A DNA stretch of 64,000 nucleotides from Spirochaetia bacterium (GTDB lineage Bacteria; Spirochaetota; Leptospiria; Turneriellales; JAOUFE01). Where the stretch lies: contig JAOUFY010000005.1 of the NCBI GenBank assembly GCA_029857955.1, forward strand, positions 1 through 64,000, given 5' to 3'. The position numbers and the translations under genes were made by a program. A model generated the notes under the pieces. The model worked only from the letters and a program-made list of their open reading frames with translations. It was not told the origin of the DNA and made no database searches. Below, one piece after another: positions 52,853 through 64,000 of this stretch; the stretch's first letter is position 1, and each line of letters begins with the position of its first letter.

Positions 52853-53650
52853 TTAAGAAAATATTTGTTTGTAAATCCATATCGATCCGGTAAAAATATA
52901 AAATACCCCTACAATTACAATCGCTACTGAAAATATTATTTTCAATAATTTTTCAGGTAAATGTTTTGACATGATAGCTCCAATTTGAGCTCCAAGAATA
53001 ACGCCGCTTCCAGTGAAAATGAGAATTTGCCAGACGATCAGTCCGGCCTGAAGATTTAAAATTGTAATGATCCAGTCACCCATGGCTTCTGCCCAGATGG
53101 CTGTGGCGTTTGAACGAATGGTTTTTATATTTAAACCGCGTTCGAGTAATGGCTGGGCGGATTCGCAAATTCCTGTACCTGTGGTTGCCGAAAAAAAACC
53201 GCCTAACAGAGGTACCCACATGTAAGGATAAATGTCTTCAACCGGTATATTTTCGCGACTTCCGTATCTACCCTGGGCTACACTGGTTAGCTGGACTACA
53301 GCAATTACGATAATTACAATACCCAGCAACAATCTAAGCAAGTTTGCATTTATAATAACTAAAACATGTGAGCCAAGTACAACCCCGGGAATCGTAAGCA
53401 TGACCAGTACAAGACCAATTTCTTTTTCTACTTTATTTTGTATAAAATACCGGATTGCTCCCGATGTCATTCCGACTGTTTCTGTCGCTACGCCGGTTGC
53501 AACAGAGCTTCCGATGGGTATGTGTAATATTAAATAATAAATGGGTTGAAACAATACGCCTCCGGAAAATCCGGAAGCATTTGCCATAACGGCTACCACG
53601 AGGGCAACGGGGAATAAATACCAGTATGTAAACCAGGGAATTGTTTCCAA
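52853..53650 (-). CDS. TSUP (TauE/SafE-family) anion permease
   Basis: 265 residues, eight predicted transmembrane helices and the two-fold TSUP pattern: the N-terminal ASGFSGGVLFQPIYY and the second-half GGFFSATTGTGICE. Members move sulfite, organosulfonates or similar anions. The start is TTG 53650, which directly follows the TAA of the HAMP gene, with the GAGGTAG ribosome site lying inside that gene's last codons, so it is tightly coupled to it. The substrate is unknown. Confidence 0.88.
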   Translation of the reverse strand: METIPWFTYWYLFPVALVVAVMANASGFSGGVLFQPIYYLILHIPIGSSVATGVATETVGMTSGAIRYFIQNKVEKEIGLVLVMLTIPGVVLGSHVLVIINANLLRLLLGIVIIVIAVVQLTSVAQGRYGSRENIPVEDIYPYMWVPLLGGFFSATTGTGICESAQPLLERGLNIKTIRSNATAIWAEAMGDWIITILNLQAGLIVWQILIFTGSGVILGAQIGAIMSKHLPEKLLKIIFSVAIVIVGVFYIFTGSIWIYKQIFS

Positions 53651-54418
53651 TTAAACTACCTCGCTATGATGGTTTGTACTAACTTGATACACTTTATACA
53701 TGTCAATTAACATGGATAATGCCGATAAGTCTTCTTTAAGGAGTTTCAGTCGACTCTGAATGTCATTTGAAGTACTTTGGAGTTTTTTTATTTGAGATAT
53801 TCCAATTTTTTTATTGTCAAGCGCCATGGCTACGATATCATCATGAAGAGCTGATTGAAGAGTCTCTTCCATGTCTCCGACGATTCTCATGAACCTATTC
53901 ATTTCAAAACGAATTTCAACGACCAGTTCCTGTAAATTGGCATTCATGTCATTGATTAGTTTTGCCAATTGTCCGATTTCATCTTCTCGATGGATTTGAA
54001 GAGTGTAGGTTAAGTCGCCATCTGCTACTTTTTTGGCGCCTTCAACAAGCGAATCTATTGGTGTTGCAATGTCTTTTGAAAAAAGCGAAAAAGCAATACC
54101 AATGGTAACAACAATTACAAGGAAAAGTAACAACATGCGAACGCGTAGTTCGTTTAATGGTTGAAATGCTTCATTCATATTTAATTTTGAGGGATCAAAA
54201 GATTCAGGTATATCAATTTGTTGTTTTAATGCTTTAATGTAGCTCTTCGATATTTTTTGTCTAAATTGTCCTTCGCTTACTTCCAGGATCACTTCAAGTG
54301 AAATGGAGATTGAAGCAAATGAAATAAGAATAAAATAAATCATCAATTTCTTTTTTATTCTGGATTCATTTATGCCAAGCAAGCTCTTGGTTTTACTTAG
54401 AATAGTTCCTATAGACAT
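53651..54418 (-). CDS. HAMP-domain membrane protein without output domain
   Basis: 255 residues: transmembrane helix 1 (about 26-46), a ~50-residue periplasmic loop, transmembrane helix 2 (about 94-113), a HAMP domain (PIDSLVEGAKKVADGDLTYTL, then DEIGQLAKLINDMNANLQ) and a C-terminal coiled-coil of ~90 residues. There is no kinase, cyclase or chemotaxis signalling module. It ends where a TSUP permease gene begins. It may be the sensor or gating partner of that transporter; this is inferred from the gene pair. Confidence 0.8.
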   Translation of the reverse strand: MSIGTILSKTKSLLGINESRIKKKLMIYFILISFASISISLEVILEVSEGQFRQKISKSYIKALKQQIDIPESFDPSKLNMNEAFQPLNELRVRMLLLFLVIVVTIGIAFSLFSKDIATPIDSLVEGAKKVADGDLTYTLQIHREDEIGQLAKLINDMNANLQELVVEIRFEMNRFMRIVGDMEETLQSALHDDIVAMALDNKKIGISQIKKLQSTSNDIQSRLKLLKEDLSALSMLIDMYKVYQVSTNHHSEVV

Positions 54419-62749: not shown

Positions 62750-62989
62750 CATATGATATTCATTTCCATCATTCATTATTTTAAGGTCAAAAATATACAT
62801 AAAGTGATGATGACAACTACTTTTTACAGTGTTTTTCTGCCGATAATGTATTTATACAGTAGCATGGTTGTCTGGTGTAATATTATTGCAAAAAAGGTTC
62901 AAACGTTTCGCGTACATGGTAAAATATAAATAATTTTATCGTTGCCAGGATGGCAATTAACATTGCAATGTTATTTAAAGGTGCAGGAT

Positions 62990-64000
62990 ATGAATTTTAA
63001 AAATATAAAAATTGGAAACAGATTAACAATTGGTTTTGGTTCTATCATTGCATTATTATCAATCACGATTTTTGCAGCAGTGGTTTTTTTAAACCAGTTA
63101 AGATCAAATGTTGAACAAACCGCCAACGAGAGTCTCCCTTTTAGTTTGCTTGCCAATAAAATGCTTTTAAATGTAGTGCAGGTGCAGCAATTTTTAACAG
63201 ATGTTTCGGCAACTCACGATGAAGCAGGTTTAAACGAGGCTAAAAAAAATGCGGATGAGTTTGCTGACGGAATTAAAAAATTTCAAGAGATGTTTAGAAA
63301 AGAAAATAACAAAGAATCTTTGGAAAAAATAAATGATCTTGAATGGGCGTTTAATGAATTTTATGAGACAGGTAAACGAATGGCCCATACCTACGTTAAA
63401 TCAGGTATTGCGGCAGGAAACGTCGTAATGGAAGAATTTGATGGCGATTCGATGGTACTTGGCGAAAAAATTCGTGAACTTAGAAATTCGCAGACAGATG
63501 AAATTATAGCAAATTCTGGTCATAACGTAGAGCTTGTTAAAAAAATACTTTATTCATTGATATTTAGCGCGATTGCTTTGCTGGTTGTCAGTATTGTAAT
63601 TTCTTTTTCTATAACAAGAAGTATTGTGAAGCCAATATTAAAAGTGTTAAACATTACCAACAAAATCAGTGAGGGTGATTTAACCGAAAAAATTATTGTA
63701 GACTCAACAGACGAAACAGGGCAGATGCTTCTGGGGATGCAAAAAATGAGTGCTAAACTCAATAGCATCATGCGTGAGGTTATTAAATCAATTGAAGTCT
63801 TAACAACGAATTCAAACGATCTCAGCATGACCGCTCAAACGTTGAGTCAGGAAGCTGTAGAACAATCTGCTAATCTTGAAGAAGTTACCGCATCCATTGA
63901 AGAAATTACTTCATCGATTCATCACACTACGGATGATGCAAATACCACTAAAAATATGGCGGTGAAAACTTCTGAGCAAGCTACTGTCGGCGGTAATGCA
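62990..64000 (+). CDS. Methyl-accepting chemotaxis protein (3' end outside window)
   Basis: 337 codons are open from ATG 62990 to the edge. Transmembrane helix 1 is at about 14-35 (IGFGSIIALLSITIFAAVVF). A ~150-residue ligand domain of the four-helix type follows, then helix 2 (about 183-205), HAMP (SIVKPILKVLNITNKISEGD) and the beginning of the signalling region, with Gln/Glu-rich repeats around SQEAVEQSANLEEVTASIEE. GGTGCAGGAT lies before the ATG. The presence of a chemoreceptor implies a motile cell. Confidence 0.92.
   Translation, partial: MNFKNIKIGNRLTIGFGSIIALLSITIFAAVVFLNQLRSNVEQTANESLPFSLLANKMLLNVVQVQQFLTDVSATHDEAGLNEAKKNADEFADGIKKFQEMFRKENNKESLEKINDLEWAFNEFYETGKRMAHTYVKSGIAAGNVVMEEFDGDSMVLGEKIRELRNSQTDEIIANSGHNVELVKKILYSLIFSAIALLVVSIVISFSITRSIVKPILKVLNITNKISEGDLTEKIIVDSTDETGQMLLGMQKMSAKLNSIMREVIKSIEVLTTNSNDLSMTAQTLSQEAVEQSANLEEVTASIEEITSSIHHTTDDANTTKNMAVKTSEQATVGGNA

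What the first reader, a model, noticed from the sequence alone, without database searches (positions are those of the whole stretch)
52853..54418. HAMP-only membrane protein fused by operon to a TSUP permease
The HAMP protein has two membrane helices and a coiled-coil but no signalling output, and its stop codon is directly followed by the TTG start of the permease, with the ribosome site inside its coding end. This tight pairing suggests a sensor that gates a transporter directly, a little-described arrangement.
Basis: partly seen in the sequence, partly recalled or inferred. Interest (0 to 1): 0.55.

Follow-up and report, generated by a model that had tools for sequence, protein, structure and literature searches.

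The report
Permease paired with HAMP relay protein
In many spirochaete genomes a membrane permease is always made together with a small relay protein that carries a signalling switch but no detector or output domain, and in about half of them a third gene supplies a chemotaxis output, which suggests a transporter wired into cell signalling.

Summary
In detail: a 255-aa HAMP-only membrane protein (53651-54418, -) whose TAA stop abuts the TTG start of a TauE/SafE (TSUP) permease (52853-53650, -). The pairing is conserved. Among 392 Spirochaetota genomes, the permease subfamily occurs in 24 (21 genera, 7 families) and the HAMP gene lies directly upstream in 24 of 24; 66 other TSUP genes examined have no HAMP neighbour. 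The same genome holds a second, paralogous pair. In 12 of the 24, a third gene follows: a seven-helix chemoreceptor (MCP) without a HAMP domain of its own. The window's genome shows no such gene. The most conserved part of the HAMP protein is its first membrane helix (78% identity, against 25% in a control set of MCPs), and HAMP-linked permeases carry a loop motif absent from HAMP-less relatives. I read this as a permease with a dedicated HAMP subunit coupled through the membrane, probably a transport-coupled sensor. 'A sensor gates the transporter' remains possible but is not favoured: the HAMP protein has no sensing domain. No interface could be predicted. No description was found in the open-access papers searched.

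The parts
53651..54418 (-). HAMP-only two-helix membrane protein, 255 aa
   Evidence: ORF; PF00672 E 5.2e-13 at residues 113-163; model
52853..53650 (-). TSUP (TauE/SafE) permease, 265 aa, TTG start
   Evidence: ORF; PF01925 E 1.4e-31
53659..53662 (-). GAGG ribosome-binding site of the permease inside the HAMP coding end
   Evidence: read from sequence; same site in sister genome G001
54275..54364 (-). HAMP protein TM1 (residues 19-48), most conserved region; Glu42 and Glu46
   Evidence: 77.6% mean pairwise identity in 24 sequences; E46 in 24/24 A and 10/10 B, E42 in 22/24 A and 10/10 B
53930..54082 (-). HAMP domain (residues 113-163)
53675..53929 (-). C-terminal helical hairpin (residues 164-248), DHp-like shape, no conserved His
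53210..53245 (-). TSUP residues 136-147, central-linker motif PxEDIYxxMWxP found only in HAMP-linked permeases
   Evidence: 7 of the 19 HAMP-linked-only conserved residues; 69 of 20000 permutations reach this clustering

Best explanation
The two genes encode a membrane complex: a TSUP permease with a dedicated HAMP transducer subunit. The permease moves or binds a small organic or sulfur-containing anion. Its conformational state is read by the HAMP protein's two membrane helices (TM1 with Glu42/Glu46) and by a cytoplasmic linker loop of the permease, and it switches the HAMP dimer. In about half of the lineages the switch is passed to a seven-helix MCP, encoded next, that has no HAMP of its own, so transport is coupled to chemotaxis-type signalling. 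In the window's lineage that third gene is not seen; the HAMP hairpin would act on another partner or back on the permease. Shown: the conserved unit, its specificity, the region-wise constraint, and the third gene. Inferred: physical complex, direction of signalling, substrate, and output in this genome.
For: HAMP-TSUP adjacency in 24 of 24 genomes with TSUP-A, gaps -4 to +65 nt over 33 aligned pairs. A second paralogous pair in the same genome, with A and B groups sister in both trees. 0 of 60 other TSUP loci have a HAMP, MCP or 7TM gene within about 1.5 kb. In sister genome G001 the pair is kept while the surrounding genes differ. TM1 77.6%, TM2 62%, HAMP 67%, periplasmic 23%, hairpin 33% identity; control MCPs show the reverse order (TM1 25%, HAMP 36%, rest of MCP 51%). 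Linker motif only in HAMP-linked permeases. The 7TM-MCP lies directly after TSUP in all 14 genomes where its N-terminal part was found, 12 A and 2 C; no HAMP found in it. Two group C loci lie among CheA/CheW/CheY-type genes. Best PDB sequence matches of the HAMP protein are the sensory rhodopsin II transducer, a HAMP protein driven by a membrane partner.
Against: The read-through fused chain gave pTM 0.53, so no interface is supported. 12 of 24 genomes, the window's included, show no 7TM-MCP. 3 of 10 group B HAMP proteins have no TSUP beside them. Relatives of the permease elsewhere do without HAMP. The linker motif and TM1 conservation come from one clade and could be shared ancestry. Core permease residues are kept (49 invariant), so it may be only a transporter.
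Confidence: 0.45

Rival explanations
1. HAMP protein as regulatory subunit: it senses something (membrane state, cytoplasmic signal at its hairpin) and opens or closes the permease.
For: Half of the pairs, the window included, lack an adjacent 7TM-MCP; permease core residues are kept as in HAMP-less relatives; translational coupling of the two genes.
Against: No sensing domain in the HAMP protein (about 44 aa periplasmic, 23% identity); the hairpin where a cytoplasmic signal would bind is weakly conserved (33%); does not explain the 7TM-MCP found only in this operon.
Confidence: 0.28
2. The HAMP protein is an assembly or stability partner of the permease with no signalling role; the HAMP fold is only a dimerisation handle.
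For: Strict adjacency with tight spacing; strongly conserved membrane helices; no output domain.
Against: HAMP core itself well conserved (67%); third-gene MCP and Che gene neighbours in groups A and C.
Confidence: 0.15
3. The two proteins are independent and merely share an operon; adjacency is inherited from one ancestor and kept by co-expression.
For: All group A pairs form one clade; some group B HAMP proteins stand without TSUP.
Against: In G001 the pair persists while the neighbouring genes differ from the window's; pairs A, B and C each keep the same order; HAMP-linked-only residues in the permease.
Confidence: 0.12

Closest known systems
Sensory rhodopsin II - HtrII transducer complex
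   Same: A two-helix HAMP protein whose input comes from another membrane protein through helix contacts; best PDB sequence hits of the HAMP protein.
   Different: HtrII carries its MCP output on the same chain; here it is absent or on a separate 7TM protein, and the partner is a permease, not a rhodopsin. Details of HtrII beyond the hit are recalled and from abstracts in a search listing.
TSUP (TauE/SafE) permeases such as KbuT of Neisseria meningitidis
   Same: Same Pfam family PF01925. Passages read in PMC12671195 say that few members are characterised, that sulfur compounds and other organic acids are thought to be carried, and that KbuT is linked to alpha-ketobutyrate use.
   Different: No HAMP partner is mentioned in the passages seen.
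Transporter-coupled sensors (DcuS with DcuB/DctA, UhpC-UhpB; recalled, no call)
   Same: A transporter or its relative supplies the input to a membrane signalling protein.
   Different: Those partners carry a histidine kinase; here there is no kinase or other output on the HAMP protein.
5TMR (S-component fold) receptors fused to MCP domains, PMC11109136 (section 9 and passages read)
   Same: A multi-helix membrane domain joined directly to an MCP output, including cases in Treponema.
   Different: Our third-gene protein has seven predicted helices and no Pfam hit over a cut-off for the membrane part; it comes with a separate HAMP protein and permease.

Membership tests
TSUP / TauE-SafE permease (PF01925) | Whole-length match over the curated cut-off | tested here: met
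   110.5 bits against cut-off 32.6, residues 12-250 to profile 1-236
TSUP / TauE-SafE permease (PF01925) | Transport activity and substrate | not testable with these tools
   49 residues shared with HAMP-less relatives are kept, but no substrate evidence
HAMP domain protein (PF00672) | HAMP domain over the curated cut-off after a membrane helix | tested here: met
   49.5 bits against cut-off 25, residues 113-163; helix 86-132 in the model
Sensor histidine kinase | HisKA/DHp with phospho-accepting His and HATPase domain | tested here: not met
   No HisKA or HATPase match; hairpin resembles DHp but no conserved His in 24 sequences
Chemoreceptor (MCP) | MCPsignal domain PF00015 on the HAMP protein | tested here: not met
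   No PF00015 match in the HAMP protein; it is on the separate third gene in 12 of 24 genomes
Sensory rhodopsin-transducer type complex | Physical contact of partner helices with the HAMP protein's helices | tested here: inconclusive
   Read-through chain pTM 0.53; TM1 hyperconserved
Transporter-coupled sensor (transceptor) | Transporter state changes a signalling output | not testable with these tools
   Only gene neighbourhood evidence

The most novel reading that the evidence does not exclude
A split, permease-driven chemoreceptor: a TSUP permease is the ligand-binding unit, the HAMP relay is a separate two-helix protein, and the CheA-facing output is a third, HAMP-less seven-helix MCP whose membrane part folds like a GPCR. 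The relay acts in trans between proteins, and in lineages like the window's it has been rewired to another partner.
Probability: 0.25. Interest if true: 0.85.

Novelty: new variant of a known kind. Interest (0 to 1): 0.6.

Why it matters
HAMP domains are normally read as relays between an input and an output on one chain. A conserved, stand-alone HAMP protein that travels with a permease, and in many genomes with an MCP that lacks HAMP, would be a natural system in which input, relay and output are separate proteins. It would make two questions testable: whether HAMP can work in trans, and whether TSUP permeases, whose substrates are mostly unknown, also act as sensors.

Tried and rejected
Fused-chain fold: reading the in-frame TAA as Gln gives one HAMP-TSUP chain. 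pTM 0.53, so it says nothing about an interface. The alignment was flawed: the C-terminal 31-50 residues of the HAMP rows were laid over the first TSUP columns (seen, which ran in the same turn as the submission), and rows were unpaired.

Hidden kinase or phosphotransfer domain on the HAMP protein: rejected for lack of a conserved His. The weak Pfam match to a clostridial toxin translocation domain (E 0.0075, under its cut-off) was set aside as a long-helix match.

A 7TM-MCP elsewhere in the window's genome: not found. In one search every listed match that includes the 7TM part is directly downstream of a HAMP-TSUP pair; the listing is cut off at E about 1e-27 and only 3 candidates per genome were scored, and the genome is about 94% complete, so absence is not proven.

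Presence outside Spirochaetota: relatives of the permease in Pseudomonadota (7 of 319 genomes at E <= 1e-25; all 7 neighbourhoods read as L066 and L163-L168) and on two phage contigs have no HAMP neighbour. No plasmid match to the HAMP protein. Other phyla were not searched in the genome search.

Literature: search listings (PMC open-access set) gave no paper on a HAMP-TSUP pair. The TSUP review by Shlykov et al. 2012 is not held, so it was not read; its reference entry was seen. Most subscription papers are not in the library.

Limits of the control: 113 rows over the TauE cut-off (my hand count), 11 of them in A/B/C pairs; of the other 102, the 60 fetched are mostly the higher-scoring ones, 6 more were read earlier, 36 were not examined; some of the 60 are cut by contig ends. 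Groups A, B and C were first found through the HAMP match, so the 11-of-11 side of that comparison is selected; the 24-of-24 count starts from the TSUP instead.

Full report
What is there. On the minus strand the window encodes a 255-aa protein (53651-54418) with one recognised domain, HAMP (PF00672, E 5.2e-13), and directly after its TAA stop a 265-aa TSUP permease (PF01925, E 1.4e-31; 52853-53650) that starts at TTG. The GAGG site for the permease lies in the last HAMP codons. In the sister genome G001 the same GAGG serves an ATG that overlaps the HAMP stop, so the start is well placed. The HAMP protein has no discrete sensor (about 44 aa between its helices) and no output; after HAMP comes a helical hairpin with the shape of a DHp hairpin (HAMP-EnvZ structure 4cti: Z 9.5, rmsd 2.9 over 114 residues) but without a conserved histidine.

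A paralogous pair. The same genome has a second HAMP-TSUP pair on contig C76, while its two other full-length TSUP genes have no HAMP neighbour. In 61 related genomes the strongest matches to the HAMP protein are short HAMP-only proteins next to a TSUP gene, and the long matches are kinase- or MCP-sized. I call the window's type group A, the C76 type group B, and a third, distant type in two genomes group C.

Survey. In 392 Spirochaetota genomes (167 genera), group A TSUP was found at E <= 1e-100 in 24 genomes and group A HAMP at E <= 1e-60 in 25. In 24 of 24 the two matches are adjacent on one strand with HAMP first. The 25th HAMP gene (G210) ends 48 nt before the end of its contig. By the tables the 24 genomes fall in 21 genera and 7 families. 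Fisher's test for co-occurrence gives 2e-37, though inheritance of the operon as a block means the genomes are not independent. An independent scan of named genomes with the TSUP alignment found 23 loci: 22 in Spirochaetota MAGs, all 22 with the HAMP gene upstream, and one in a Proteobacteria MAG without it. Intergenic distances run from -4 to +65 nt over 33 pairs, median 5. The control: 60 other TSUP loci in the 61 related genomes gave no HAMP, MCP or 7TM hit within about 1.5 kb, while all 6 positive-control loci did; 6 more TSUP loci read earlier also lacked HAMP.

History. Group A and B permeases are sister in the TSUP tree, and group A and B HAMP proteins are sister in theirs, as expected if the pair was duplicated as a unit; the TSUP tree has long outgroup branches and moderate support at that node (93/85). 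Tandem A+B pairs occur in G167 and in L051/G184. In G001 the A pair is kept but its neighbours (CstA, a QueG-like protein) are not those of the window (FtsX-like protein and the rpsF-ssb side). Against strict pairing, 3 of 10 group B HAMP proteins have no TSUP beside them; two of those are followed by a CIA30-domain protein, and G001 keeps a B-type TSUP on another contig.

The third gene. In 12 of the 24 genomes a protein of about 560-573 aa (two of the twelve cut by contig ends) follows the permease directly. It has seven predicted helices, then a coiled coil with an MCP tip (PF00015), and no HAMP. In one search all 14 genomes with a match to the seven-helix part have it directly after a HAMP-TSUP pair (12 A, 2 C). 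In the two group C loci the protein lacks the MCP tip and lies among genes for CheW/HATPase (CheA-like) and response-regulator proteins. Where the 7TM-MCP is missing, some operons have a 560-625 aa coiled-coil protein with weak or no MCP match (L052, L061). The window's genome and its sister show none of these next to the pair. The predicted seven-helix domain resembles GPCRs (Z 16.6, rmsd 3.8 over 218 residues), but the model is weak (mean pLDDT 73, pTM 0.41) and helical bundles score high by default.

Where the constraint lies. Among 24 group A HAMP proteins mean pairwise identity is 78% in TM1, 62% in TM2, 67% in HAMP, 33% in the hairpin and 23% in the periplasmic part; the permeases average 69%. 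Glu46 at the outer end of TM1 is present in 24 of 24 A and 10 of 10 B sequences, Glu42 in 22 of 24 and 10 of 10; neither is kept in the two C sequences. In six ordinary MCPs the order is reversed: TM1 25%, HAMP 36%, rest of the MCP 51%. The permease side shows 49 residues shared by all eight HAMP-less relatives and by at least 95% of the HAMP-linked ones, so the transport core is kept, and 19 conserved only in HAMP-linked ones; 7 of the 19 fall in residues 136-147 (PxEDIYxxMWxP), the linker between the two halves (69 of 20000 permutations as clustered). A K/R-bearing stretch just before it suggests a cytoplasmic side (inference by the positive-inside rule). This fits contact between permease and HAMP protein in the membrane and at the linker, but the HAMP-linked permeases form one clade, so shared ancestry is an alternative.

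Mechanism. The anatomy asks for an outside input to a HAMP protein without sensor, and the nearest analogue by sequence is the sensory rhodopsin II transducer, which takes its input from a membrane partner. I therefore favour the permease as input, HAMP as relay, and the adjacent MCP, where present, as output. The reverse direction (HAMP gates permease) is the main rival and may hold in lineages, like the window's, where no output gene is adjacent. The attempt to see an interface by folding the read-through chain failed (pTM 0.53). The TSUP half resembles BacA (5oon: Z 13.6, 235 residues, rmsd 3.9); no PDB chain matched it by sequence.

Novelty. Nine open-access paper searches returned no description of a HAMP-TSUP pair; the standard TSUP review is not in the library. 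I file it as a new variant of transporter-coupled membrane signalling, with a bolder reading given separately.

Noticed in passing
L155:3477-4256 and L156:3995-4774: Relatives of the permease (46-47% identity) on two IMG/VR contigs, inserted between phage-like genes (a clamp-loader-like AAA+ protein follows directly; gene names recalled from sequence). A permease carried by phage, without HAMP.
   Followed up: partly
L046:6784-8469: Seven-helix MCP whose membrane domain has no Pfam match and whose predicted fold resembles GPCRs (Z 16.6, weak model).
   Followed up: partly
L036:2716-3738 and L037:5357-6388: Group C version of the seven-helix protein with the MCP signalling tip missing, lying among CheA/CheW/CheY-type genes.
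   Followed up: partly
L087:2210-3556 and L088:3001-4352: Group B HAMP-only proteins followed not by TSUP but by a 187-aa CIA30-domain protein: a possible second kind of partner.
   Followed up: no
L052:5536-7413, L056:8500-10158, L060:8615-10480, L061:6905-8587: 550-625 aa coiled-coil proteins, next to the permease or the 7TM-MCP; Pfam gave no or sub-threshold MCP match for the three scanned.
   Followed up: partly
L051:5147-8260 and L079:3482-6616: Group A and group B HAMP-TSUP pairs in tandem.
   Followed up: yes
L045, L046, L048, L050, L051, L058, L079 downstream of the module: An aspartate/ornithine carbamoyltransferase-type gene (identified by Pfam in L046; similar starts by eye in the others) and a further enzyme gene recur after the module; substrate link unknown.
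   Followed up: no
window 52853-53650 (model residues 262-512): The TSUP model resembles undecaprenyl-pyrophosphate phosphatase BacA (Z 13.6 over 235 residues).
   Followed up: no
window 62942-64000 (continues beyond the window): Start of an ordinary MCP (516-520 aa) about 8.5 kb from the pair on the same contig.
   Followed up: no
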